In this document: piece by piece, positions 331 to 20,647 of the stretch | Position numbering within the stretch: the stretch's first letter is position 1 | Layout of the letters: every line of letters starts with the position of its first letter | Source of the DNA: Candidatus Gastranaerophilales bacterium | GTDB taxonomy: Bacteria > Cyanobacteriota > Vampirovibrionia > Gastranaerophilales > Gastranaerophilaceae | Assembly: GCA_944322835.1 (NCBI GenBank) | Contig: CALUQF010000002.1 | Coordinates: 1-38,488 of the forward strand | Direction of reading: 5' to 3' | Length of the DNA stretch: 38,488 bases | Notes under the pieces: model-generated | The model's database searches: none | What the model saw: only the letters and a program-made list of their open reading frames with translations | What the model was told of the DNA's origin: nothing | Made by a program: the position numbers and the translations under genes

Positions 331-1173
331 TTATGCTCTTGAACTTTGCCACATTAAGTCGCCAATTGCCAATGCTGCTGCACCTATCCAGCCGGCTTTA
401 GGTAATTTCTTTAACCCGGGTAATAATTTGAATGCTACAGCTCCGGTTAAACCTGCAAGGCCGGCTTCTGTAACCTTTGCGGCAGCAGCTCCGTAGCCCT
501 CCATTCTGTCTTTGCCAGCTTTGTTATCAACTCTGGTATCGTAGATATAGCTTAAAGTTTCTTCCGAATACTTGTCATGGTAATCTTTACCGTGAACGTT
601 CTTCCAAAAACCATGTTCAAACGGAGTTTGTCCAAACTTCTTGATATCATTTCTTAAATCAACAACTTCATCTCTTTGTTTAGAAATTATTTGATTATAT
701 AATATTTCTATCCAGTTTGTTACACTGTCTCGAGGATCAAGTTTATCGCTATTAGCTTTGAAATAATCATTGTATTTAGTATAAAGAGTATGTTTAAGTG
801 CATCAAATTCTTCACAAATACCATCCTGATCACCTTCTTGAATTTTTGCTGCTAAGTTTTGCACCCCTTTATTAACTCCGGCATCAACCATCGCTTTTTC
901 AAACAAGGCTCTATCTTGGGCAGTAAAAGCCTTGGTTTCATTTTCAAGCATCATCTCATGCATTGCGCTTGTATGATTTAACATCGACTTTTCAACGTTT
1001 TGCATCTGGCTTGCCATAAATGTCGGATTATAATATCCGCCGAGCATTCCCATACCCATTCCCATCATTGCCGGATTATAGTATGAGCTATATGCTCCTC
1101 CGTATCCGCCAAGTCCGTACATCCCGAGCGGGCTTGTATATGGGCTTATTCCTGTTATGCCGTAACCTAGCAT
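331..1173 (-). CDS. Unknown Gly/Met/Tyr-rich protein, 280 aa, member of the shared-promoter group
   Basis: I do not recognise this family. The first ~50 residues are low-complexity Gly, Tyr, Met and Pro (runs such as MGMGMGMLGGYY). The middle (60-210) is charged, predicted helical and globular. The C-terminal ~45 residues are Ala/Gly/Leu-rich with a basic segment (KLLPGLKKLPKAGW), possibly amphipathic or membrane-inserting. There is no Sec signal peptide. The start follows a strong AGGAGGT Shine-Dalgarno 6 bases upstream. It is a single-gene unit, with its own terminator at 274-302 and a copy of the compound promoter element at 1211-1273. It is likely exported or surface-associated by a non-Sec route, but that rests on composition and promoter sharing only. 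Confidence 0.85.
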   Translation of the reverse strand: MLGYGITGISPYTSPLGMYGLGGYGGAYSSYYNPAMMGMGMGMLGGYYNPTFMASQMQNVEKSMLNHTSAMHEMMLENETKAFTAQDRALFEKAMVDAGVNKGVQNLAAKIQEGDQDGICEEFDALKHTLYTKYNDYFKANSDKLDPRDSVTNWIEILYNQIISKQRDEVVDLRNDIKKFGQTPFEHGFWKNVHGKDYHDKYSEETLSYIYDTRVDNKAGKDRMEGYGAAAAKVTEAGLAGLTGAVAFKLLPGLKKLPKAGWIGAAALAIGDLMWQSSRA

Positions 1174-1210: not shown

Positions 1211-1273
1211 CTTACATATTAATAAAGTATTTTTACCGTTGAAAATTGCTTTTTTTTATCGATTATCTTTACA
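1211..1273 (-). promoter_or_regulatory. Compound promoter element, copy A (variant)
   Basis: On the minus strand: TGTAAA (1273-1268), 37-base spacer containing GCAAT, 14 bases, then ATACTTTATTAATATGTAAG (1230-1211). It matches the three other copies (10438-10498, 14228-14288, 19082-19142) except for the first box, a 2-base longer spacer and a few changes. It sits 37 bases before the start codon at 1173. Confidence 0.5.
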
Positions 1274-1319
1274 AAAGTTTACAAAGTTTAACCGGTTGTA
1301 ACTATTCATTTATTTTAAC

Positions 1320-10392: not shown

Positions 10393-10429
10393 AATAAACC
10401 TCTAAGTAAAAGCTTGGAGGTTTATTTTG
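10393..10429 (+). terminator. rpmB terminator
   Basis: AATAAACCTCTAAG (10393-10406) pairs with CTTGGAGGTTTATT (10413-10426), 6-base loop, then TTTG; located 24 bases after the rpmB stop. Confidence 0.7.
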
Positions 10430-10437
10430 TTAAGTTT

Positions 10438-10498
10438 TGTAACGATTTTTATAATTTATGAAATTTGATAAAATTTATATACTTTATATACATGTAAG
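10438..10498 (+). promoter_or_regulatory. Compound promoter element, copy D
   Basis: TGTAAC (10438-10443), a 35-base spacer with GAAAT at its positions 17-21, then ATACTTTATATACATGTAAG (10479-10498). The start codon of the small acidic protein is 27 bases on. Box order and the 35-base spacing are identical in copies B and C. Confidence 0.6.
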
Positions 10499-10525
10499 AT
10501 GAATAAAAAAATAAGGAGACTCGAT

Positions 10526-10819
10526 ATGTCAACAGAAGTAAATGCAAATGTATTAAAGACTTTTTTATCAAATAATCTTGGTATTCGTAAATTGGATCAA
10601 AACCAGGCACAAAAATATGATATAGATGCTGATAAGTATGCAGAAGTTGATAAAGACGAAAATGGTATTGAAATAGATGAAATACTTCAAGATAGTGATT
10701 TGTATGAACAATTTGCAACACTCTATCTGGAAGAACAAGATAAAGCGAATTCTGCAGATGCAGAGAAAGAGAAAGAAGAAGAGGCTAAAGTAAAGGACAA
10801 AGGCGAGAGCAAAGCATAA
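10526..10819 (+). CDS. Small acidic protein with EF-hand-like segment, 97 aa
   Basis: Family not recognised. An N-terminal helix (VNANVLKTFLSNNL) is followed by YDIDADKYAEVDKDENGIEIDEIL (~30-53). Within it DKDENGIEIDE resembles an EF-hand loop but is one residue short, so calcium binding is uncertain. The C-terminal third is a highly charged Glu/Lys tail. No signal peptide is seen. The ATG is chosen for AAGGAGA 6-7 bases upstream; an earlier in-frame ATG at 10499 lies inside the promoter element. It is monocistronic, with a terminator at 10846, and belongs to the shared-promoter group. Confidence 0.85.
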   Translation: MSTEVNANVLKTFLSNNLGIRKLDQNQAQKYDIDADKYAEVDKDENGIEIDEILQDSDLYEQFATLYLEEQDKANSADAEKEKEEEAKVKDKGESKA

Positions 10820-10845
10820 AAGAGAATTATAAGGTATTTGTATTT

Positions 10846-10872
10846 AAGCGGGAAATGTATTCCCGCTTTTTT
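10846..10872 (+). terminator. Terminator of the 10526-10819 gene
   Basis: AAGCGGGAA (10846-10854) pairs with TTCCCGCTT (10860-10868), followed by TTTT. Confidence 0.85.
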
Positions 10873-10949
10873 ATTATTTATTCTCCTCTATTCGTTTGAT
10901 TACAAATTTGAATAAATATTTTAAACTTATATTGTTAATGGGGAGAGAT

Positions 10950-11822
10950 ATGGTTAAATCAAATTTAAAAGAGAAAAAAAATAAAGCAGCAGTTCTTAAG
11001 ATTGTAGATGAAAATGCAGTAAAAACAACTGCATACAGTGATATTAATCTTAAAAAATGGCGTGATTATGAACATATTAAAACAGATACTTTATGGGAGT
11101 TTCCTGTACGCTTAAAAGAGGGCGGGCATTCAAATGAGTATCATGGTAATTATATTCCTCAAATTGCCCAGCAAATATATGAACGGTTTACAAAAAAGAA
11201 TGATATCGTCTTAGACTTATTTTTTGGCTCCGGAACTTCGGGAATAGAAGCTGTAAATATGAATAGGCGTTGCATAGGTGTTGAATTAAAAGAGGATTTG
11301 GCAGAAAAAGTCTCTGAAAAATTCACTCCAAAACAGCTTGTAACTGATGTAAATATTATTTGTGCAGATTCTGCAAGCGAGCTGGCTAAAGATAAAATCC
11401 AAGCCAGACTGGATATTATGGGGAGTAAGCAGGCCCAGCTTTTAATGCTTCATCCGCCATATGACGATATTATAAAGTTTTCTGATAAAAAGGAAGATTT
11501 ATCCAATTGCGCAACTACGGAAGAATTTTACGAGCTTTTTGAAAAAGTTGCAAGAAATGGCTATGATTTGTTGGAAAAAGGTCGTTTTGCCTGTTTGATA
11601 ATTGGTGATAAATATGCAAATTCGCAGCATATTCCTTTAGGATTTGAATGTATGGCACGTATGAATAAACTGGGGTTTATAACTAAAGCTATTATAGTAA
11701 AAGACGTTCAAGGCAATGAAAGAGCAAAGGGCAAGACTGCTAATCTTTGGCGTTATAGAGCTTTAGCCGGTGGATTTTATATTTTTAAGCATGAATATGT
11801 TATGGTATTTCAAAAGATATGA
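10950..11822 (+). CDS. Orphan N4/N6 DNA methyltransferase
   Basis: An amino-methyltransferase acting on adenine N6 or cytosine N4 in DNA. At 290 aa it has the SAM-binding motif I DLFFGSGTSG (~89-98) before the catalytic motif IV HPPY (~168-171), with His replacing the usual Asp/Asn/Ser. An N-terminal block LWEFPVRLKEGG...HGNYIPQIAQQ is typical of the N4/N6 methylase family found as solitary or phage-borne enzymes. No restriction endonuclease is nearby. The ATG is chosen for GGGGAG 4-5 bases upstream; an earlier ATG at 10896 lacks a site. Its TGA overlaps the next ATG (ATGA), linking it to the DUF167 gene. The target sequence cannot be read from the sequence. Confidence 0.88.
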   Translation: MVKSNLKEKKNKAAVLKIVDENAVKTTAYSDINLKKWRDYEHIKTDTLWEFPVRLKEGGHSNEYHGNYIPQIAQQIYERFTKKNDIVLDLFFGSGTSGIEAVNMNRRCIGVELKEDLAEKVSEKFTPKQLVTDVNIICADSASELAKDKIQARLDIMGSKQAQLLMLHPPYDDIIKFSDKKEDLSNCATTEEFYELFEKVARNGYDLLEKGRFACLIIGDKYANSQHIPLGFECMARMNKLGFITKAIIVKDVQGNERAKGKTANLWRYRALAGGFYIFKHEYVMVFQKI

Positions 11823-12106
11823 TAAAACAAGTTGATGACGGTATTTTGGTGCGAATTAGAATTTTGCCCGGAGCTTCCAGAAATGAAATTGTATTTGATG
11901 AAGATTTTGTAAAAATCAAAATCGCGGCTCAGCCGGTAGAAAATAAAGCAAATAAAGCTCTGATAGAATTTTTATCAAAACATTTTAGACTTCCCAAATC
12001 CAGTATAAAGATAATAAAGGGCGAGAATACTAAAGAAAAAACACTTTTATTTTCTACTGATGATTCAGAGAAGAAAAATTTTATAATTTCTCAATTGACA
12101 AAATAG
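11819..12106 (+). CDS. DUF167 (YggU) family protein
   Basis: A 95-aa conserved protein of unknown function. The family pattern is clear: VRIRILPGASRNEI, then KIKIAAQPVENKANKALIEF and IKIIKGENTKEKTLLF. It overlaps the methyltransferase by 4 bases (ATGA), so translation is coupled. The family is widespread and often sits near YggT; here it does not. Confidence 0.93.
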   Translation: MIKQVDDGILVRIRILPGASRNEIVFDEDFVKIKIAAQPVENKANKALIEFLSKHFRLPKSSIKIIKGENTKEKTLLFSTDDSEKKNFIISQLTK

Positions 12107-12145
12107 CTTAAAAAATATACTATAGATATAAAAGGAAAATTTTGT

Positions 12146-12448
12146 ATGTATAAGCGCTGGTATGATGTAGATCCTACAATAAGTTTAGCAGTAAGTTTAA
12201 TGCGTAATGCAAATATAATGACGCAGTATAAATGTGCAGATTTAATTGTGCAGAAATCTAAAGAAAATGGGATTGATTTGGCAGATAATATTTTGGCAGA
12301 TGCGTTTACTTATGTGCTTAGGCGTTGGTATGATACGGATCAAAAGATTGCTGAAGCTTTTGAATATTTGAAGTGTTTGCCGCTGGAAATCCAAAAAGAA
12401 GTTGCGCTTGAAATAATAAATCTATTACAGGAAGAGGAAGTAAAGTAG
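12146..12448 (+). CDS. Unknown 100-aa protein with duplicated RWYD motif
   Basis: Not recognised. Mostly helical, with two similar segments: KRWYDVDPTISLAVSLMRN (~3-21) and RRWYDTDQKIAEAFEYLKC (~58-76). This suggests an internal duplication with the motif RWYDxDxxIxxA. No signal peptide or membrane segment. The start follows AAAGGA. The transporter gene begins 4 bases after its stop, so the two are probably cotranscribed. Confidence 0.8.
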   Translation: MYKRWYDVDPTISLAVSLMRNANIMTQYKCADLIVQKSKENGIDLADNILADAFTYVLRRWYDTDQKIAEAFEYLKCLPLEIQKEVALEIINLLQEEEVK

Positions 12449-12452
12449 TTTA

Positions 12453-13772
12453 ATGAGTTCTCTTTGGCACATCTGCTTGAATCCGGCGTTTATATCAGTA
12501 GTATTACTTTGTATTTTATGCCTAAAAAAAGTAAATGTACTTTTGGCAATAATTATTTCAACTTTGGTGGCTGGATTGGTAGCCGGAATTAATGTAAAAG
12601 ATGTCATGCATATATTTATTTCCGGTATGGGTGATAATTCTGAAACTGCATTAAGTTATATTTTATTAGGTGCTTTTGCTGCTACAATGGCGCATTCGGG
12701 GTTTACAGATGTAATTTCTACTAAAATTACAAATGTAGTCTCTGGTAATAAGGTGGTGTTATTACTAATTCTAACACTAATAGCAATGGCTTCACAAAAT
12801 ATAATACCTATTCATATAGCTTTTATCCCCATTATTATTCCGCCATTGTTAGGAATAATGAATAAGCTTAAAATTGACCGGCGTGCTGTTGCCTGCGTAC
12901 TTGCTTTTGGCCTTAAAATGCCTTATATTACTATTCCTGCCGGCTTTGGTTTGATATTCCAAAATCTTATTGCTGATAATATGATTCAAAATGGAGTTTA
13001 TGTTATGAGAAATGATATTTGGAAGTATAATTCAATTTTAGGCTTGGGTATGGTTGCAGGGCTTTTGATTGCTGTATTTATAAGTTATAGAAAACCGCGT
13101 ATATATGAGGATAAACCTCTTGCTAATATTGTTTCTGGCGGTAATAATAAATTTTTACCCAAACATTGGATTGTATTACTTGCGGCATTGGCTACTTTTA
13201 TTGTGCAGCTTTTAACACAATCATTGCCATTAGGTGCTTTGGTCGGTTTGGGCATAATTTTTACATGTCGTGTTGTACCTCAGGATAAAATGGATCATAT
13301 GATGAATGAAGGTATTTATTTGATGGGATATGTTGCCTTCGTTATGCTTGTTGCTGCCGGCTTTGCATCCGTTTTAAAAGAGTCTGGTGCTATTAATTCT
13401 CTTATATCTTCTGTGGTTACTTTTATGCCGGAAAATATTCTAATAACCTCTTTAGTAATTCTTATAATGGGCTTATTTATTACTATTGGTATAGGAACGT
13501 CTTTTGGCACCATTCCTATACTTGCAGTGTTGTTTATTCCTGTATGTATTCATATGGGATTTAACACAGCCCAAATAGTTATTTTATTATCAGCAGCAGC
13601 TGCTTTAGGTGATGCTGGTTCTCCGGCTTCGGATACAACGTTAGGCCCCACAGCAGGTTTAAATGCTGATGGTCAGCATAACCATATTTTTGATACCTGT
13701 ATTCCGACTTTTCTCCATTATAATATTGCTTTAATTTTATTTGCGCTTCTAGGTATCTGGATTTTTGCTTAA
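12453..13772 (+). CDS. YuiF-like Na+/H+ antiporter-superfamily permease
   Basis: An inner-membrane secondary transporter of 439 aa with about 10-12 hydrophobic helices. The C-terminal signature GDAGSPASDTTLGPTAGLNADGQHNH followed by DTCIPTFLHYN is characteristic of the NhaC-like group that includes Bacillus YuiF, a histidine permease. The substrate here is therefore likely an amino acid (histidine possible) or Na+/H+, and cannot be decided from sequence. It is coupled to the preceding small gene (4-base gap) and ends 3 bases from a convergent gene. Confidence 0.88.
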   Translation: MSSLWHICLNPAFISVVLLCILCLKKVNVLLAIIISTLVAGLVAGINVKDVMHIFISGMGDNSETALSYILLGAFAATMAHSGFTDVISTKITNVVSGNKVVLLLILTLIAMASQNIIPIHIAFIPIIIPPLLGIMNKLKIDRRAVACVLAFGLKMPYITIPAGFGLIFQNLIADNMIQNGVYVMRNDIWKYNSILGLGMVAGLLIAVFISYRKPRIYEDKPLANIVSGGNNKFLPKHWIVLLAALATFIVQLLTQSLPLGALVGLGIIFTCRVVPQDKMDHMMNEGIYLMGYVAFVMLVAAGFASVLKESGAINSLISSVVTFMPENILITSLVILIMGLFITIGIGTSFGTIPILAVLFIPVCIHMGFNTAQIVILLSAAAALGDAGSPASDTTLGPTAGLNADGQHNHIFDTCIPTFLHYNIALILFALLGIWIFA

Positions 13773-13775
13773 TTA

Positions 13776-14204
13776 TTAGTTCAATCCATAATCAAAGTCT
13801 TCTTGGATGTTACTTGAAAGCATTGATTGAAGTGATTCCATATACGCATTAACTTCTTCTAATTCAGCACTATTTGTAGTAATTTGTGAGTCAATTACTG
13901 TTTCCCAAGCAGTTAGCTCGTCGAACTGTTCTTGGTATTTTGCAGTAATTTTATCAATTTCTTCTTCAAACTCAGGGATTTCAGTATAGTCTGTATATTC
14001 GCCTTGTAAACTTTCATCTTCTTCAAATAAAGTTTTAAAATAATCTCTAACAGAATGAGATTCTGCATTTTTCAAAGATTGAGCATCTGCCTGAGAATAT
14101 GTTGCGAGTGATTTTTTGTTCTGAAGCTCGGTAATCTCAAGGTTAAGAGCGTTTCTTCTTAACTTATAGCTTAATAATGTTTCGTGTAAATTTGCGATTG
14201 CCAT
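13776..14204 (-). CDS. Unknown coiled-coil protein, 142 aa, shared-promoter group
   Basis: Not recognised. The N-terminus (MAIANLHETLLSYKLRRNAL... LATYSQADAQ) and C-terminal half are predicted coiled-coil, separated by an acidic stretch (FEEDESLQGEYTDYTEIPEFEEEIDK). No cysteines, no signal peptide, no membrane segment. The N-terminal ~35 residues align loosely with those of the 17735-18883 protein (LL, R, E, Q, K, LAT in the same order with a small gap). Copy B of the compound promoter ends 24 bases before the ATG. The Shine-Dalgarno is weak (GGTGA). Confidence 0.83.
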   Translation of the reverse strand: MAIANLHETLLSYKLRRNALNLEITELQNKKSLATYSQADAQSLKNAESHSVRDYFKTLFEEDESLQGEYTDYTEIPEFEEEIDKITAKYQEQFDELTAWETVIDSQITTNSAELEEVNAYMESLQSMLSSNIQEDFDYGLN

Positions 14205-14227
14205 CTTTGTTCACCATCATTTTAAAT

Positions 14228-14288
14228 CTTACATATATATAAAGTATTTAAAATTTATTTGATTTCACAAAGAATAAAAACTGTTACA
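14228..14288 (-). promoter_or_regulatory. Compound promoter element, copy B
   Basis: On the minus strand: TGTAAC (14288-14283), a 35-base spacer with GAAAT at positions 17-21, then ATACTTTATATATATGTAAG (14247-14228). Spacing is identical to copies C and D. Confidence 0.6.
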
Positions 14289-14293
14289 TTTCT

Positions 14294-14776
14294 TTACATT
14301 ATCTTTTCTTTAAGATTCAGAGACTTAGAAGCATTTACAGCCAGAGTATCACATCTTTCATTAAATTCATGACCGGCATGCCCTTTTACCCAAATAAATT
14401 CCACATTATGCGGCTCTTTTGCTTTCAAAAGTCTTTGCCAAAGCTCAATATTTTTTACCGGAGATTTGCCAGCCGTTCTCCACCCTTTCTTTATCCAGCT
14501 GTCAATCCAATTGTTATTAAAAGCATCTACGACATATTTACTATCAGAATATAGAGTAACATCACAGGGCTTTTTGAGAGCTTCAAGCCCTGAAATAACT
14601 GCAAGGAGTTCCATTTGATTATTGGTTACACTTTTAAAGCCTTCTGAAAGCTCTTTTTCATGCTTAATTCCATTTTTATCAATATGTACCAAAATTGTAC
14701 CAAAACCTCCGGGACCGGGATTACCGCTGCAAGCCCCATCAGTATATATATTTACATGAATTCTATTATCTGCCAC
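14294..14776 (-). CDS. rnhA: Ribonuclease HI
   Basis: Cleaves RNA in RNA-DNA hybrids. At 160 aa it is full length. The catalytic acids are Asp13 ([15 protein letters not shown]), Glu56 (NNQMEL), Asp78 (LYSDSKYV) and Asp143 (NERCDTLA), with histidines in KGHAGHEFN. The gene begins 2 bases after the stop of the HEAT-like gene and ends just before the promoter element of the next gene. Confidence 0.97.
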
Positions 14777-14778
14777 TT

Positions 14779-15060
14779 TTACGCTGCAACACCTTTTATT
14801 TCAGATATAAGGTATTTAGCAACCCATTCAAAATCCTTATTGTTGTTAGCGGCTTTTTTTAGATATTCAACAGAAGCCTCGCCAATTCTGATAAGTGTCA
14901 TAGCAACGACACCGCGCTTAACGCCTTTTACAACCTGTAGTTGATTAACAAGTTCCGGAACAACAGCCGTACCTTTATCTACTAAAATATTTTCAATTTT
15001 GTTTTTAGTTGTGTTGTCTGCTGTTTCTAATTTGCCAAGCATTTCTTCTACTGATTGCAT
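14779..15060 (-). CDS. Small HEAT-repeat-like protein, 93 aa
   Basis: An all-helical protein whose segments ([45 protein letters not shown]) resemble HEAT/PBS-lyase repeats, usually protein-interaction surfaces. Function unknown. The internal ATG is chosen because AAGGAG lies 6 bases upstream; the ATG 15 bases earlier overlaps that site. It is coupled to rnhA (2-base gap). Confidence 0.8.
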
Positions 15061-15140
15061 ATCTTTCTCCTTCATATTTCATTCGTTCTTTGCATTATTA
15101 TTATAGACTAAATTTTTTCTAAACTAAGATTTCCTTATAT

Positions 15141-15164
15141 AATCTTAATATCCATATTAAGATT
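15141..15164. repeat. Perfect AT-rich palindrome AATCTTAATAT-CC-ATATTAAGATT
   Basis: 11-bp arms with a 2-base centre, between the GT-C stop and the HEAT-like gene start. It has no T run on the minus strand, so it is either a weak terminator of the GT-C gene or an operator for the HEAT-rnhA unit. Confidence 0.5.
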
Positions 15165-15190
15165 ACTTAAAATATGTAAAGAAAGACTGT

Positions 15191-16642
15191 TTATTTTTTT
15201 TCTGCAGTTATAATAGTCCAGGCACCCTGTGTATCGACGTTGTAATTTGTATAATTTGTATCCAATTCTTTTATTAAACAGTTTTTTATATGTGAAAATG
15301 TCAAAAACATTTCCGGAATTTTTGAATTATTAGAATTTAAATTAATAAAATTTTCATTAAAAAAACTTACACTGTCTAAAAAAATAACGGAAACTAGCTG
15401 ACCTTTATTTATGTTGTTTAGAATTTTTGCCGGATTGTCTTTATATTCATGACGATTAATTTTGCTTATAAAATATGTGTTTTTGCATGTTAAATCAATA
15501 TAGCGTAAGAATCTGTCAGGTTCATAATATGTGAATACTATGCAGTCAGGATTCCTATGTTTAAGAATTTCTGCAGGAATCTTATGGCCTTCGCTGCGTT
15601 GTATTTTAGTTACATAATAGGGGCTAAAAAATGCCGCTGTGTGTATAGAAAGAAATAAGAGGAATAGTATAATTCCCGTTTTTTTTATTGTATTAAAACC
15701 TAAAGACAGTATTAAAATAAATGCCGGAAGTATTTCTATTGAATATTTTGTTATAAAAACGATTTTGCCTGTTATAGATAAGATTGACATTACCAATATT
15801 GTAAACAGACAAACAATACTTAACCCCTTTAATTTCCTGATTCCGGCTGCAAACGGTATAATAGCAGTCAATAATGAAAGAATCATCCAGACGGATTTAG
15901 CTTTATGATAGAAAAAAACAGGTGGTGCATTAACATTATTTGTAAGTATAGGTGAGAAAAAGTCAGAGAATAAAAATAAAATATTTGTATAACTGAAATT
16001 CCCCCACCATTGCGAAGCTGGAAGCATTCTTAGAATATTTATTCCCCAAAAACAGCATAATATTGCGCAAAATAGGCCTGTCAACAAAATTACAGCTGTT
16101 ATCTTTTTTTTCTTGTAAATAATATATATAGTATTAAAAAAAACAAAAACTATGCCAAGAACATGTGTTGTAACGATTAAAGCACATGAGATAATGTAGC
16201 CCGTAATATTTAACTTGGAATTTGTTTTAAGTAGTCGTATCGTGAAAAGAAGTAATAGAGTTGTAAATAGAAATAATAATGAATAAAATCGAACTTCTTG
16301 TGAGTAATAAATTAAAAATGACAGCACTGATGTTATAGAAGCAGCAATTAACCCTATTTTTTTTGAAAATTCTTTTCCTGCAAGATACATAACCGGAATC
16401 GCCAGTACTCCAGGAATTAGTGATGTTAACCTGAGTATTAAATCTGAACAGTGAGAAAAAGGTTTAAGGTATAAATAATAGAGCGGCATATGGCATTGTT
16501 TAAGCACTTCTTCCCAAAAGCCGCTATTAAACGGTGTGTTTGCAACATACCAGCTCACATATTCATCGTTCCATAAACCTTCGGGTTTATTTATGAAAGT
16601 CAATCTTAATAATAAGCCCAGAAATATTATAAAAAATAGCAA
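15191..16642 (-). CDS. GT-C fold membrane glycosyltransferase (PMT/ArnT-like)
   Basis: A polytopic membrane enzyme of 483 aa with about 10-11 helices over residues 1-335, then a soluble C-terminal part. It transfers a sugar from a polyprenyl-phosphate donor to a lipid or protein acceptor on the outer face of the membrane. The acidic first-loop motif GLWNDEYVSW (~22-31) and SQEVRFYSLLFL (~113-124) are typical of the PMT_2/GT83 group. The start codon is TTG, supported by GAGGGGAG just upstream. It is divergent from the GT2 gene, 37 bases apart, suggesting that GT2 makes its lipid-linked donor. Confidence 0.85.
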   Translation of the reverse strand: MLFFIIFLGLLLRLTFINKPEGLWNDEYVSWYVANTPFNSGFWEEVLKQCHMPLYYLYLKPFSHCSDLILRLTSLIPGVLAIPVMYLAGKEFSKKIGLIAASITSVLSFLIYYSQEVRFYSLLFLFTTLLLLFTIRLLKTNSKLNITGYIISCALIVTTHVLGIVFVFFNTIYIIYKKKKITAVILLTGLFCAILCCFWGINILRMLPASQWWGNFSYTNILFLFSDFFSPILTNNVNAPPVFFYHKAKSVWMILSLLTAIIPFAAGIRKLKGLSIVCLFTILVMSILSITGKIVFITKYSIEILPAFILILSLGFNTIKKTGIILFLLFLSIHTAAFFSPYYVTKIQRSEGHKIPAEILKHRNPDCIVFTYYEPDRFLRYIDLTCKNTYFISKINRHEYKDNPAKILNNINKGQLVSVIFLDSVSFFNENFINLNSNNSKIPEMFLTFSHIKNCLIKELDTNYTNYNVDTQGAWTIITAEKK

Positions 16643-16643
16643 C

Positions 16644-16672
16644 TTGCTCCCCTCTTAATATTTATATATAAT
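16644..16672 (+). promoter_or_regulatory. Promoter of the GT2 gene, leaderless arrangement
   Basis: TTGCTC (16644-16649), a 17-base spacer and a perfect TATAAT (16667-16672), only 7 bases before the ATG at 16680. The expected transcription start is at or next to the start codon, and there is no Shine-Dalgarno. Confidence 0.5.
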
Positions 16673-16679
16673 ATTTTAC

Positions 16680-17621
16680 ATGACCAAGCTGATTATTCAA
16701 ATACCTTGTTTTAATGAGGAGAGCACATTATTAACAACACTAAACGCTCTCCCCAAAAAAATTCAAGATATTGACGAAATTGAAGTTCTCGTGATTGATG
16801 ACGGGTCTGAGGATAAATCTGCAAAAATTGCTGCTGATTGGGGTGCAAGTGTTCTTGAAATCAAACCGAACAGAGGACTTGCCAATGCGTTTAGAAGTGG
16901 AATTGCAGAGGCTTTAAGGCTAGGTGCAGATATTATTGTTAATACTGATGCTGATAACCAGTATTGTGCAGATGATATTGAAAAACTTGTTAAGCCGATT
17001 CTTGTGGGGAAGGCTGATATTGTAATTGGTGCAAGAGATATTTATTCAATAAAAGAATTTTCTCCAATGAAAAAGCTTTTTCAAAAAATAGGTTCCGCTG
17101 CTTTAAGGCTCTTGTCCTCTGCTCCTGTAGAAGATGCACCCAGCGGATTTAGAGCTTTTTCTAAACAAGCGGCAATTAGATTAAATGTTTTTGATAATTA
17201 TACTTATACGATGGAAACACTGCTTCAGGCGGGTGCAAAAGGACTAAAGATTGTATCTGTGCCTGTTAGGGTAAATTCTATGCTGCGTAAATCCCGATTG
17301 GTAAAAAACATATTTGATTATATTTTTAAATCAATGAAAACTACAATAAGGATGTTTATTGTTTACCGCCCTTTTAGATTTTTTATATCAATAGCTTCGA
17401 TTTTAGGTATTGTTGGTTTAATGCTTGTTACAAGATTTTTATATTTTTATATTCAAGGTAACGGTAACGGACATATTCAGTCACTTATTTTTGCTGCAAT
17501 ATTCTTAATTTCAGCTGTTCAAATCGGAATTATAGCAATTCTGGGTGATTTGCTTTCTATTAATAGAAAATTAATTGAAGATATTCAGACAAGAATAAAG
17601 AAAATTGAGCTTAATAAATAA
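16680..17621 (+). CDS. GT2 glycosyltransferase, polyprenyl-phosphate sugar synthase-like
   Basis: A 313-aa DPM1/GtrB-like enzyme that would load a sugar onto polyprenyl phosphate at the cytoplasmic face. The GT-A domain has QIPCFNEESTLL (7-18), VIDDGSEDKS (~39-47), NRGLANAFRSGI, and the metal-binding DAD at 90-92. Two hydrophobic helices (~230-255 and ~263-288) anchor it, as in GtrB/ArnC. It is paired divergently with the GT-C enzyme. The sugar is unknown. Confidence 0.9.
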   Translation: MTKLIIQIPCFNEESTLLTTLNALPKKIQDIDEIEVLVIDDGSEDKSAKIAADWGASVLEIKPNRGLANAFRSGIAEALRLGADIIVNTDADNQYCADDIEKLVKPILVGKADIVIGARDIYSIKEFSPMKKLFQKIGSAALRLLSSAPVEDAPSGFRAFSKQAAIRLNVFDNYTYTMETLLQAGAKGLKIVSVPVRVNSMLRKSRLVKNIFDYIFKSMKTTIRMFIVYRPFRFFISIASILGIVGLMLVTRFLYFYIQGNGNGHIQSLIFAAIFLISAVQIGIIAILGDLLSINRKLIEDIQTRIKKIELNK

Positions 17622-17622
17622 G

Positions 17623-17647
17623 AAAAAACCGCTTTGGGAAGAAGCGG
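17623..17647 (-). terminator. Terminator of the 17735-18883 gene
   Basis: CCGCTT-loop-GAAGCGG hairpin; on the minus strand it is followed by TTTTTT. It lies immediately after the convergent GT2 stop codon. Confidence 0.75.
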
Positions 17648-17734
17648 CTAAAGAAAAGGGAAAAAGGGAAATGGGAATTTGGGGTGAAAATAAGTAGAAT
17701 AAGTTTTTATTTACTACCCCGGTTTGTAAACTTA

Positions 17735-18883
17735 TTAACTAAATATACCAAAGGTTCTTTCAATGTTGTCATCTCTTACCTTGCTGATTGATTCCATTTC
17801 TGTAGTAATAGATGTTCTTTCTGTTTCTAATTTACTTAAATCATTATCAAATTTGGTATCTTTTGTATTTATATCACTTAATTCACGTTCATATTCTAAT
17901 TCTGCTTTCTTTAAATCTGTTTCATCAGATACTTCTTGTAGATAACTTGAACCTGTACTTGTTGCTACGCTTGTGTCATCCCATTCATTAGTATCCGGAT
18001 TAAACTCAGAAATAAGTACGCGGCCTGATTGTACCATGTTATTGAACCATTCATTTGCTTCTTTACCTGAAACGTATTGTGGTTCTATTACTTGGCAGCC
18101 TCCATTTTCCTGAATTGCTGCGTATAATGATACATAATAATTAAACTTTTCCTCTATTGACTGCCAGGTCATATCATCATAAACCTTGTTATTTTCCTGA
18201 TCTGCCAATACGACTTCCTGACTATCATTTTTGTTTAAGTTCATGTAATTAAAGATTTCATCACCATACTTCTCATAAAGCATATCTCTAAAATTGGTCA
18301 AAGCTTGACTCTTTGAAGCAAGATCTTCGGAATTTTCAATTTCATCATATGCTGCAACTAAGTCTGTATCATCTTGATGCTCACTAAATACTAATTCTTC
18401 CATATCAGACATTGTTACAAAATCATTGTCATATTGATTAGTGCCACCAATAAATTCCGCATTACCAACGGTATCTCCGCCAGCTGCTCCCTCATCAAAA
18501 CAGAAACAACCATCAAAGCCTACCATCGCCCAAGCAAATGTATATTTGTCTGATTCATATTTTTCATACATTTCTGCAGTATTTTCATCAACAATAAGCT
18601 TACCTGTTTTTGCATCTGTCAAAATATATTGAGTGCATCTGCTGCTATCGTATCCGCAGACAGTAGAAAAATTTGCATCTACAAAATTTTTGGAACCGTC
18701 ACTATTATAGAATGCGACTTGAATTTTCTTGGCATCTAATGCATCACAATAGGCTTGGTACACTTCGTCTTTTTGTGTAGCCAAAGCTATTTTCTGGCTC
18801 TCGATATTTTGTGCTTTGTACTCAATATCATGGAGTCGGCTCGTTAGAGTTAATAATCTAGCTTGTGATGCTGCCATTCCCAT
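17735..18883 (-). CDS. Unknown acidic coiled-coil protein, 382 aa, shared-promoter group
   Basis: Not a named family to me; proteins opening MGMAASQARLLTLTSRLHD are, from memory, multi-copy in gut Gastranaerophilales. Coiled-coil helices at the N-terminus (~1-50) and C-terminus (~300-375, KKAELEYERELSDINTKDTKFDNDLSKLE) flank an acidic globular middle rich in Asp, Asn, Tyr and Gly. The middle contains several cysteines (VCGYDSSRC, GCFCF). The helix-globule-helix plan, without a Sec signal, recalls flagellar or type III export substrates; this is inference. The start at 18883 is chosen for AAGGA upstream (12 bases, rather far); an in-frame ATG at 18937 would add 18 residues but has no site. Copy C of the promoter is ~200 bases upstream with a terminator in between. 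Confidence 0.82.
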   Translation of the reverse strand: MGMAASQARLLTLTSRLHDIEYKAQNIESQKIALATQKDEVYQAYCDALDAKKIQVAFYNSDGSKNFVDANFSTVCGYDSSRCTQYILTDAKTGKLIVDENTAEMYEKYESDKYTFAWAMVGFDGCFCFDEGAAGGDTVGNAEFIGGTNQYDNDFVTMSDMEELVFSEHQDDTDLVAAYDEIENSEDLASKSQALTNFRDMLYEKYGDEIFNYMNLNKNDSQEVVLADQENNKVYDDMTWQSIEEKFNYYVSLYAAIQENGGCQVIEPQYVSGKEANEWFNNMVQSGRVLISEFNPDTNEWDDTSVATSTGSSYLQEVSDETDLKKAELEYERELSDINTKDTKFDNDLSKLETERTSITTEMESISKVRDDNIERTFGIFS

Positions 18884-19004
18884 TGTTGTTCGTAGTCCTT
18901 TGTTTATTTTTCCCTTGTTTAATATTGTTAACGGCATAATTGCATTAAAACTTTAGCTTTTTATAAAATATTGTTACAAATCTTTACATGTCATATAAAA
19001 TTGC

Positions 19005-19029
19005 AAAAAAAAACTTCTCAAATGAGAAG
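19005..19029 (-). terminator. Rho-independent terminator between the radical SAM gene and the 17735-18883 gene
   Basis: CTTCTCA (19014-19020) pairs with TGAGAAG (19023-19029); on the minus strand a run of nine T follows. It lies 124 bases after the radical SAM stop but also downstream of compound promoter copy C. Confidence 0.8.
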
Positions 19030-19081
19030 CCAGAAAATTAGTTAGGAAGGGATTTTAGGGATTAATTTTTTTTATTTACAT

Positions 19082-19142
19082 CTTACATGTATATAAAGTA
19101 TATAAAATATCCCCAATTTCGCCAGTTGTTTTATTTGTTACA
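19082..19142 (-). promoter_or_regulatory. Compound promoter element, copy C
   Basis: On the minus strand: TGTAAC (19142-19137), a 35-base spacer with GAAAT at positions 17-21, then ATACTTTATATACATGTAAG (19101-19082), identical over 20 bases to copy D. A partial second core, TTTTATATGACATGTAAAG, lies nearer the gene at about 18987-19005. Confidence 0.6.
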
Positions 19143-19153
19143 ATTCTTAATAT

Positions 19154-20647
19154 TTATATGCGGCTTAATAACCTTTTGTATTCGTTTATTAGTAAATTTT
19201 TGGGCGGATAATTTTCTACTATATCCCAGGGGAGGGCCTCTTGCAGCTCAAATCCGTTTATAGCTTTAAAAATATCCGGCTTAGTTTCTTTTAAAGCTTT
19301 TTTATATGCTCCGATATTTTCACCATTTTTGTATACAGCAGTCAGAAATTCCGCAAGATTTTCATCTCCCCTTGAAAGAATTGTTTGCCAGTAATCCCAT
19401 TTAATACTGGAGAATTTTGATTTTACTCCGATTTTTGCAAGTTCTTTTTCCAGAAACTTTTGTTTTTTTTCTAATGTTTTGGACTCTTCTCTTTTTGCCC
19501 ATTGAAAAGGCGTTTGCGGTTTGGGAACGAACGTGGAAAATGAAAATTCTATACTAAACCCTTTATTCTCAGCTTTTATTTTTTTTGCAAGATTTAAAAA
19601 TTCTTGAATATCATCATCTGTTTCATTCGGAATCCCTATCATAGAATATATTTTGAGCCCTTTTAAGCCGTTTTCACGTGCAATTTTAACCGCATTTAAT
19701 ATTTGTTCTTCTTTTAAATTCTTGTTAATAAATTTTCTTAAGCGTTCACTCGCAGCCTCAATAGCAATTGTGGAATGCTTTTGGCCTCCTTTAACAAGAA
19801 TTTGCACCATTTTAGGAGTTACAGAGTCTGTTCTTAGAGAGGAAATCCCGAGCTCAATATTTATTCCGCTGTCGATTTTTTGTTCGATATATTCCATAAT
19901 GTTTTCAAATTGCGGATGTGCACTTATTTGCGCTCCGAGAAGTGCTATCTTATTTGTATAATTTAAACCCAGTTCTATTGCATCAATGATTTTTTCGTAT
20001 TCATAATATCTGAAAGGCAGGTTTATATATGAGGCTGTGCAAAAAGCACATCTATTCATACATCCCCGTGCTATTTCTATAATAAATGTGTCTTTAAAAT
20101 AGCTTTTATCGCTAAGAATTGGGGTATATATTACATTATCCAGCTTTGCAGTATATTTTTTTACCGATTTTTGCGGGATATAAATCCCATCAACGTCAGC
20201 TAATAATTCCAGAGCGTGTTTTTTGTTGTTGCTTTTCAATATATCTAATACCCTTGTAAACGTATTTTCTCCATCTCCTGCAATCATAAAGTCAAAAAAT
20301 TTCTCATATGGGCGCGGATTTGTAGTGATTACAGGACCGCCGGCAAATATAAGCGGATGGGATTCGTCTCTTGAGTTAGAATAAAAAGGAATGTCTAATT
20401 TTTCCAGAATATTAAAAACTCCGATAAAATCAAAATCGAACGACATTGAAAAGGCTATAGCATTAATACTACGAATAGACGGAATATTGTCGGTATATGC
20501 CCTTATTGCATTTATTCCGTCTCTCATATCAGCCTCTCTATAAAGCCATAAATACCCGAGAGAGGCCATTGCAAAAGATTCCGGCGCCGGATAGGCCATT
20601 AATAGGTTATAATTTCCGGTATTTGGAGTGTATAAAAACTTTTCCAT
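19154..20647 (-). CDS. Radical SAM protein with N-terminal B12-binding-like domain
   Basis: A 497-aa iron-sulfur enzyme. The first ~135 residues resemble a cobalamin-binding-like Rossmann region (AIAFSMSFDFDFIGVFNIL, LIFAGGPVITTNP, FMIAGDGENTF). The radical SAM cluster motif is C196-x3-C200-x2-C203 in ARGCMNRCAFCTA, followed by the usual barrel segments. It most resembles the TIGR03960-type B12-binding radical SAM family (from memory); the reaction is unknown. Its ATG shares one base with the stop of the upstream exporter gene (TGATG), so the two are coupled. Confidence 0.87.
   Translation of the reverse strand: MEKFLYTPNTGNYNLLMAYPAPESFAMASLGYLWLYREADMRDGINAIRAYTDNIPSIRSINAIAFSMSFDFDFIGVFNILEKLDIPFYSNSRDESHPLIFAGGPVITTNPRPYEKFFDFMIAGDGENTFTRVLDILKSNNKKHALELLADVDGIYIPQKSVKKYTAKLDNVIYTPILSDKSYFKDTFIIEIARGCMNRCAFCTASYINLPFRYYEYEKIIDAIELGLNYTNKIALLGAQISAHPQFENIMEYIEQKIDSGINIELGISSLRTDSVTPKMVQILVKGGQKHSTIAIEAASERLRKFINKNLKEEQILNAVKIARENGLKGLKIYSMIGIPNETDDDIQEFLNLAKKIKAENKGFSIEFSFSTFVPKPQTPFQWAKREESKTLEKKQKFLEKELAKIGVKSKFSSIKWDYWQTILSRGDENLAEFLTAVYKNGENIGAYKKALKETKPDIFKAINGFELQEALPWDIVENYPPKNLLINEYKRLLSRI

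What the first reader, a model, noticed from the sequence alone, without database searches (positions are those of the whole stretch)
10438..19142. A compound promoter-like element shared by unknown non-Sec proteins: a possible new regulon
Four places carry TGTAAC, a spacer, GAAAT, 14 bases, then ATACTTTATATACATGTAAG: 10438-10498 (+), 14228-14288 (-), 19082-19142 (-) and, looser, 1211-1273 (-). In the first three the distance from TGTAAC to the long block is exactly 35 bases and GAAAT is at the same offset; the 20-base block is identical in two of them. Such length and fixed spacing in AT-rich DNA are unlikely by chance. Each is oriented toward an unknown protein without a Sec signal (97, 142, 382 and 280 aa). 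No ordinary housekeeping gene in the window has the element. It could be an activator site plus a special sigma promoter.
Basis: seen in the sequence. Interest (0 to 1): 0.82.

Follow-up and report, generated by a model that had tools for sequence, protein, structure and literature searches.

The report
Family-wide compound promoter of gut bacteria
The repeated DNA element is very probably a special type of gene switch used about sixty times in this gut bacterium and shared by its close relatives, turning on mostly unknown proteins and several small RNAs, probably through a sigma factor of its own and a regulator that photosynthetic cyanobacteria use to respond to light.

Summary
The element is a compound promoter: core G(C/A)AATT-17 nt-TTTATA(A/T)A, with an 18-bp direct repeat upstream matching HLR1, the cyanobacterial RpaB site, at the distance where RpaB activates. 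The genome has 64 core matches (control 4). Of 68 sites examined, 61 lie outside called genes, although about 90% of the DNA is coding. The core exceeds its control at least twofold in each of 52 same-family genomes scanned (gut Gastranaerophilales, inferred), but not in 94 genomes of eight other families. A divergent sigma factor follows the same distribution (52/52, 0/94); a second nearly does. Two tests not selected by the promoter support it: the best matrix match lies at a fixed place before 119 of 120 copies of an ultra-conserved small RNA (102 score above 14 bits), and 21 of 29 homologues of one regulon protein in other genomes have it upstream. Correction: the third window copy runs into a terminator and probably makes a small RNA, not the 382-aa protein. 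RpaA/RpaB homologues of unknown purpose are published for this non-photosynthetic lineage; this gives them candidate targets. Promoter function is strongly supported; sigma factor, regulator and direction of control are inferred. No expression data were available.

The parts
10426..10443 (-). HLR1-like direct repeat (15 of 16 scored positions), upstream of copy 1
10460..10465 (+). -35-like box GAAATT of copy 1
   Evidence: box defined from 61 sites
10483..10488 (+). -10-like box TTTATA of copy 1; start of transcription predicted at about 10495-10497
   Evidence: start inferred from the conserved small RNA
10526..10819 (+). 97-aa protein, no Pfam match over cut-off, start codon 32 nt after the 33-base core
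14283..14300 (-). HLR1-like direct repeat (16 of 16), upstream of copy 2
14261..14266 (-). -35-like box GAAATC of copy 2
14238..14243 (-). -10-like box TTTATA of copy 2; start predicted at about 14229-14231
13776..14204 (-). 142-aa protein, no Pfam match over cut-off, start codon 28 nt after the core
19137..19154 (-). HLR1-like direct repeat (14 of 16), upstream of copy 3
19115..19120 (-). -35-like box GAAATT of copy 3
19092..19097 (-). -10-like box TTTATA of copy 3; start predicted at about 19083-19085
19005..19085 (-). predicted small RNA of about 80 nt with a C-rich single-stranded stretch (ATCCCTTCCTAAC); no ORF of 60 aa or more listed on this strand between copy 3 and the terminator
   Evidence: existence as an RNA is inferred
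19012..19031 (-). intrinsic-terminator-like hairpin followed by T run, between copy 3 and the 382-aa gene
1268..1285 (-). HLR1-like direct repeat (16 of 16), upstream of copy 4
1244..1249 (-). -35-like box GCAATT of copy 4
1221..1226 (-). -10-like box TTTATT of copy 4; start predicted at about 1212-1214
331..1173 (-). 280-aa protein, start codon 42 nt after the core; only a below-cut-off match to DUF4400
17735..18883 (-). 382-aa protein; probably not a direct target of copy 3 (terminator between); has an HLR1-like repeat (18973-18990) but no core upstream (best matrix score -14.7)

Best explanation
The element is a two-part promoter. Core: a -35-like box G(C/A)AATT and a -10-like box TTTATA(A/T)A, 17 nt apart (shown as conserved sequence; box names inferred). 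Upstream lies HLR1, two KTTACAWW half-sites 10 bp apart in either orientation, with centres about 48-62 nt before the predicted start. Inferred mechanism: an OmpR-type response regulator of the RpaA/RpaB kind binds the repeat and activates RNA polymerase carrying a lineage-specific sigma factor (best candidate the 297-aa group-2-like protein at G000:C28:4508-5398) that reads the core. This switches on about 60 transcription units together: mostly unknown proteins plus several small RNAs.
For: Enrichment and place: own genome 64 against 4 control; 61 of 68 sites outside called ORFs against a coding fraction of 0.896; clear gap in scores in 438 kb, 11 sites above 25 bits, then 17.2 and 15.0. A start codon with a ribosome-site-like sequence follows at 12-48 nt in 46 of 57 downstream ORFs. 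A position outside the search pattern is conserved: G at -1 in 53 of 61. HLR1: >=14 of 16 positions in 39 of 61 sites against about 2 expected in shuffles; the 2-nt gap of HLR1 stands out (39 sites; other gaps 4-14, each with 1.2-2.5 expected); main offsets 10-11 bp apart. In photosynthetic relatives RpaB activates from HLR1 at about -45 to -66 (PMC13421787, passages). Distribution: each of 52 same-family genomes has 23-64 matches, at least 2.1 times its control (1768 against 294 in all), while 94 others have 0-9 matches with controls 0-14. Sigma candidate 52/52 and 0/94 at E<=1e-62, with TKECIRQTE in region 4.2 where the own RpoD has TRERIRQIE, in the 6 sequences read, own included. RpaA-like regulator: best PDB match RpaA, E 1.2e-79, 270 bits, next 144. 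Tests not selected by the promoter: best matrix match at -42 or -44 from an ultra-conserved small RNA in 119 of 120 distinct (related) copies among 90 possible positions, 102 of them above 14 bits; matrix score >14 upstream of 22 of 30 ribbon-helix-helix genes, one per genome, 21 of 29 without the own training site.
Against: No expression data. A second divergent sigma (G000:C104) is also confined to the family (47/52, 0/94 at E<=1e-95), so co-occurrence does not single out one sigma. HLR1 matches also occur without the core: of 10 perfect intergenic ones in 438 kb, 4 lie near a core, so the repeat is not exclusive to these promoters. Half-sites at other gaps also exceed shuffles. 7 of 61 sites score <=12 of 16 for HLR1, chance level. 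8 of 30 ribbon-helix-helix promoters score under 14 (related variants by eye), 18 of 120 small-RNA promoters likewise, and the small RNA's core in the own genome is degenerate. A crude TTGACA-TATAAT scan showed no excess over permuted hexamers (34 against 36 and 34), so a contrast with ordinary promoters was not shown. Short leaders at some sites (12-17 nt from the core) sit uneasily with a start at about position 35; TACTTT as -10 box with a start near position 31 is not excluded.
Confidence: 0.62

Rival explanations
1. The housekeeping RpoD polymerase, helped by an RpaB/RpaA-type activator, reads a weak core; no special sigma is involved (an ordinary activator-dependent promoter class).
For: Core geometry is sigma-70 like (17-nt spacing, TATA-rich -10); group-2 sigmas overlap RpoD in specificity (recalled). 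HLR1 occurs beside the core at most of the 61 sites.
Against: The GCAATT box is highly conserved (G -1 in 53/61, not in the search pattern; AA 61/61 and T 58/61, partly fixed by the pattern) and differs from TTGACA; restriction to one family, while RpaA/RpaB orthologues are reported across all three Melainabacteria orders (PMC4040986, passages), fits a family-specific reader better.
Confidence: 0.2
2. The second family-specific sigma (C104, 309 aa) or a group 3/ECF sigma reads the core instead of the C28 sigma.
For: C104 sigma is also family-confined; the genome has 8 sigma-70 region 2 hits, whose best family matches include SigF/B-type, FliA-type and ECF-type.
Against: C28 is found in all 52 family genomes (351-396 bits in the 51 others); C104 falls below the cut in 5 genomes of genus g7 that keep the element at 23-48 matches, though a weaker orthologue may be there; 40 of 52 genomes keep the C28 sigma within 2.5 kb of the element-driven small RNA, none of the 9 g7 genomes and not the own one. 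All of this is indirect.
Confidence: 0.15
3. The block is a dispersed repeat, a transcribed leader (RNA) element or an operator for a repressor rather than a promoter.
For: Long conserved 3' part (TTTATATATATGTAAG) reaches close to the ribosome site in some genes.
Against: Flanks differ between copies; the element precedes stretches without a good ORF that end in terminator-like hairpins; boxes at fixed 17-nt spacing with an upstream activator-type repeat.
Confidence: 0.03

Closest known systems
RpaB/NblS regulon of photosynthetic cyanobacteria (HLR1 element)
   Same: Same 18-bp consensus KTTACAWW-N2-KTTACAWW (8 of 61 sites perfect) at the activating distance; RpaA-like gene present, and an RpaB-like regulator next to a histidine kinase.
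   Different: Organism group is non-photosynthetic; targets here are mostly unknown proteins and predicted small RNAs; the core promoter sequence was found in none of the papers I saw; which regulator binds is untested.
Group 2/alternative sigma promoters of cyanobacteria (types 2 and 3, SigF pilA1-type)
   Same: Two-box core at sigma-70-like spacing; genome has group 2-like, SigF/B-like, FliA-like and ECF-like sigma factors.
   Different: Core G(C/A)AATT-17-TTTATA does not match TTGACA/TATAAT, the SigF (TAGGC) or SigB (RGGNTTRA-N14-GGGTAT) promoters described in the passages read (PMC2758279).
PhoB/OmpR-type activator promoters
   Same: Direct-repeat activator site upstream of the -35 box, at positions about one helical turn apart.
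   Different: Half-site sequence is that of RpaB, both orientations are used, and a conserved -35-like box is kept (comparison recalled).

Membership tests
RpaB (HLR1) regulon | HLR1 consensus with 10-bp period | tested here: met
   39/61 sites >=14 of 16 against about 2 expected; other gaps 4-14 sites
RpaB (HLR1) regulon | HLR1 at about -45 to -66 for activation | tested here: met
   main offsets -35/-33 and -25/-22 from the core put repeat centres at about -62 to -48 if the start is near position 35; the start itself is inferred
RpaB (HLR1) regulon | an RpaB orthologue and NblS kinase in the genome | tested here: inconclusive
   RpaA orthologue clear; second regulator beside a histidine kinase is RpaB-like by position only; RpaB and NblS reported for the group (PMC3787301, passages)
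RpaB (HLR1) regulon | binding of RpaB/RpaA to the sites | not testable with these tools
   needs EMSA, DAP-seq or ChIP
Alternative-sigma regulon | shared non-housekeeping core at fixed spacing before many operons | tested here: met
Alternative-sigma regulon | a cognate sigma with the same distribution | tested here: inconclusive
   C28 sigma 52/52 family genomes, 0/94 others; but C104 47/52 and 0/94, so the cognate one is not singled out
Alternative-sigma regulon | transcription by that sigma | not testable with these tools
   needs in vitro transcription
Sigma-70 housekeeping (TTGACA-17-TATAAT) promoter | TTGACA -35 and TATAAT -10 with T at the last position | tested here: not met
   -35 consensus G(C/A)AATT, -10 TTTATA
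FliA/sigma-28 promoter | TAAA-N15-GCCGATAA (recalled) | tested here: not met
   consensus differs; the window flagellin gene has no element above 14 bits

The most novel reading that the evidence does not exclude
In gut Gastranaerophilales, the RpaA/RpaB regulators that photosynthetic cyanobacteria use for light and clock control work with a lineage-specific sigma factor to run a host-niche regulon of about 60 units (cytosolic-looking unknown proteins, cell-wall enzymes, a putative ADP-ribosyltransferase, small RNAs), possibly the cargo of the type III-like export apparatus found in this family; the ancestral role of these regulators would then be independent of photosynthesis.
Probability: 0.2. 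Interest if true: 0.85.

Novelty: new variant of a known kind. Interest (0 to 1): 0.7.

Why it matters
Published genomes note RpaA, RpaB and NblS homologues in this non-photosynthetic lineage and say they may have another function (PMC3787301, passages). The element supplies about 60 candidate target promoters in this genome and an address for each predicted transcription start, so the question becomes directly testable. It also groups, by a shared regulon, many genes that sequence comparison leaves blank, and brings a small RNA with a 28-nt stretch kept in all 52 family genomes scanned that reached no Rfam gathering score in the loci scanned.

Tried and rejected
(1) Dispersed-repeat or chance reading: rejected by varied flanks, intergenic placement and score gap. 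(2) 382-aa gene as the direct target of copy 3: rejected because of the terminator and no core directly upstream of the gene. (3) Pairing of the conserved small RNA with regulon start regions: no difference from other genes (43 against 277 start regions, medians -8.7 and -8.3 kcal/mol, p = 0.37). (4) Contrast with TTGACA-TATAAT promoters by counting: uninformative. (5) Sigma co-occurrence as a discriminator between C28 and C104: weak. (6) Element before the type III-like operon of two relatives (L327, L328): no site above 20 bits. (7) tblastn of regulon proteins on 182 loci held, chiefly of relatives (one, L137, is of the own genome): hits in other genomes for only four queries at E<=1e-5; those loci are a small sample. 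(8) Literature: searches for Gastranaerophilales + promoter, Melainabacteria + sigma factor, Melainabacteria + regulon, Vampirovibrionia + sigma factor, Gastranaerophilales + small RNA gave listings (15 of 41 papers, 4, 5, 0 and 2) in which I saw nothing on this element (listings only). Not tested: signal peptides; protein structures; whether the small RNAs exist.

Counts: the two patterns give 70 places together; two with 3 mismatches (C18:10981, C66:1614) were not fetched, leaving 68. Of 68 sites, 7 overlapped called ORFs; two of these (C183:1358, C195:874) were kept and C114:5466 and C140:2135 were dropped by hand, leaving 61 for the matrix and HLR1 counts. The matrix sites were chosen by pattern, so core letters inside the pattern are conserved by construction. 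One site (C21) counted as intergenic is the one called genic. The HLR1 control for the small RNAs was a single-base shuffle.
Full report
Observation. The window is contig C2 (38,488 bases) of a 1.985-Mb, 212-contig genome, 90.2% complete.

Genome scale. The 18-base block at <=3 mismatches gives 32 matches against 8 for the pattern read backwards. MAATTN15ACTTTATANANRT at <=1 mismatch gives 64 against 4; the longer form at <=3 gives 53 against 11. Of the 70 places together I fetched the surroundings of 68: 61 lie outside ORFs called at 80 aa or more, 7 overlap one. In 438 kb not chosen for the element the coding fraction is 0.896 and the matrix finds 13 sites above 14 bits (1 called genic, reversed matrix 0); 11 of these exceed 25 bits, the other two score 17.2 and 15.0; ten of the 11 were in the training set. 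Of 57 downstream ORFs, 46 start 12-48 nt after the 33-base core with a ribosome-site-like sequence.

Anatomy. From 61 sites: G at -1 (53/61), C or A at 0, AATT, then at +20 ACTTTATA(T)A, then a weaker AYATRTAAG. Variants before homologous genes in relatives (such as GCACTT...GTTTTTATA) suggest by eye that the most constant parts are GCA and TTTATA, whose boxes are 17 nt apart, the usual distance between -35 and -10 boxes. The conserved small RNA suggests a start near position 35; a start near 31 with TACTTT as -10 box is not excluded. Upstream, an 18-bp direct repeat matches HLR1 (consensus in PMC11633204 and PMC13421787, passages): 54 of 61 sites have >=13 of 16 positions against about 11 in shuffles, 39 have >=14 against about 2, 8 are perfect. 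Gaps other than 2 nt give 4-14 sites, themselves above the 1.2-2.5 of shuffles, so half-sites are generally frequent but the HLR1 gap stands out. The repeat is found in both orientations mainly at offsets -33/-22 and -35/-25 from the core, 10-11 bp apart, which fits binding on one face of the helix.

Distribution. In each of 52 genomes of the same family the core has 23-64 matches, at least 2.1 times its own control of 0-18 (1768 against 294 in all); the 94 genomes of eight other families of the class have 0-9 with controls 0-14. A divergent sigma-70 protein (C28:4508-5398, 297 aa; 38% identical to the own RpoD) has one copy in each of the 52 and none in the 94 at E<=1e-62. A second (C104) has 47/52 and 0/94 at E<=1e-95; the five misses are all in genus g7, which keeps the element. 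So co-occurrence supports a family-specific sigma, with C28 slightly favoured.

Regulators. Of three OmpR-type regulators over the cut-off, the one on C114 is RpaA-like (PDB RpaA 9dvt, E 1.2e-79, 270 bits, next 144) and the one on C8, next to a histidine kinase, is RpaB-like by position. RpaA, RpaB and in part NblS homologues are published for the group, with function open (PMC3787301, PMC4040986, PMC5877343, passages).

Small RNAs. Copy 3 in the window leads into a terminator-like hairpin 50-70 nt on, with no ORF of 60 aa or more listed on that strand in between; I predict an RNA of about 80 nt. Five other own sites (C13:6415, C122:3120, C101:214, C126:3948, C32:9437) lack a convincing nearby ORF and run into T-rich hairpins, read by eye; C126 and C32 share sequence. 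In relatives a site stands before a ~65-nt stretch ending in a hairpin and T run, whose 28 nt CTCTCTCTTCTTATTTAAACGGATAGGC are present once in each of 52 family genomes (50 exact, 2 with one mismatch) and in none of 94 others at <=3 mismatches. A scan of named genomes gave 115 stretches with an exact match before its limit; the 80 listed are titled mostly Candidatus Gastranaerophilales, Melainabacteria or uncultured bacterium, with a few other labels such as Fusobacterium, Heliobacteriaceae and Brachyspira. On 120 distinct copies, which are related to one another, the best matrix match lies at -42 or -44 in 119 among 90 possible positions; 102 of 120 score above 14 bits, and the exception scores -19.4. 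HLR1 at >=14 of 16 occurs in 56 of 120 against 1.8 in single-base shuffles. In 40 of 52 genomes this RNA lies within 2.5 kb of the C28-type sigma gene; in the own genome and genus g7 it does not. No Rfam family reached its gathering score in the five relatives' loci scanned; one sub-threshold match to the L20 leader (30 bits, gathering 58.7, E 0.048) overlaps the RNA in L175. In the own genome the RNA is present (C130) but its core is degenerate.

Homologue test. Two own targets are 62-aa ribbon-helix-helix proteins. Searching 40 family genomes by protein found them in 39; in the 30 loci returned, one per genome, 22 have a matrix score above 14 in the 220 nt upstream (21 of 29 without the own locus, which is a training site), while of 792 windows of 225 nt from the same loci, both strands, 24 do, the upstream regions themselves included. 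The other 8 have, by eye, a GCACTT or otherwise related core at a similar distance.

Targets. Of 20 larger regulon proteins scanned one by one, 6 have a match over Pfam's cut-off: LysM, HEAT repeats, LysM with amidase_3 and phage lysozyme, ADP-ribosyltransferase, glucosaminidase and a coiled-coil KIF21A-like domain; two more targets are ribbon-helix-helix proteins; the four window proteins have none. All 52 family genomes carry a match to FHIPEP, the export-gate protein of flagella and type III secretion, though at least one (G088) shows only the short form, so export of Sec-less proteins by such a route is possible but untested; in two relatives the FHIPEP operon itself has no element above 20 bits.

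Mechanism, shown and inferred. Shown by sequence: a two-box core at constant spacing; an HLR1 repeat upstream of most sites; intergenic placement before genes and RNA-like stretches; confinement to one family among those scanned; conservation before homologues. Inferred: that the boxes are -35/-10, the start position, activation rather than repression, RpaA/RpaB as binder, C28 sigma as reader. Confidence: promoter 0.95; HLR1 bound by an RpaA/RpaB-type regulator 0.65; dedicated sigma 0.65; C28 in particular 0.5; statement as a whole 0.62.

Noticed in passing
relatives L172-L176, L293-L321; own L292 (C130:3603-3630): Ultra-conserved ~65-nt small-RNA-like stretch with 28 nt kept in 52 of 52 family genomes; no Rfam gathering-level match in the five relatives' loci scanned.
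   Followed up: partly
G000:C77:7255-8304 (L325:6859-8337) and relatives: About 495-aa protein matching only the C-terminal half (positions ~310-655) of FHIPEP, seen in many family genomes, mostly beside a full-length FHIPEP (listing cut short).
   Followed up: no
L327, L328 (unnamed relatives): Full-length FHIPEP gene in an operon with proteins that look by eye like FliE, FliF and a further basal-body protein; no element above 20 bits in front.
   Followed up: partly
G000:C43:6813-8796 (L326): Own flagellar FlhA-like gene is split over two frames (608 and 123 aa), a frameshift or an assembly error.
   Followed up: no
G000:C106:1534 (L097:382-1503) and G000:C54:594: Element in front of a protein with an ADP-ribosyltransferase domain (E 3.6e-16); a second copy of the element at C54 precedes what looks like a decayed copy of the same gene start.
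   Followed up: partly
window 18973-18990: HLR1-like repeat (15 of 16) upstream of the 382-aa gene without a recognisable core; other perfect HLR1 matches without core exist in the genome, so the regulator's targets may be wider.
   Followed up: partly
G000:C104:6270-7196: Second divergent sigma factor confined to the family (47/52 at E<=1e-95), with an isoleucine where the own RpoD has threonine in region 2.4.
   Followed up: partly
G000 contigs C41 end, C171 end, C123 start: Same element plus gene start at three contig ends, suggesting a multi-copy gene that broke the assembly.
   Followed up: no
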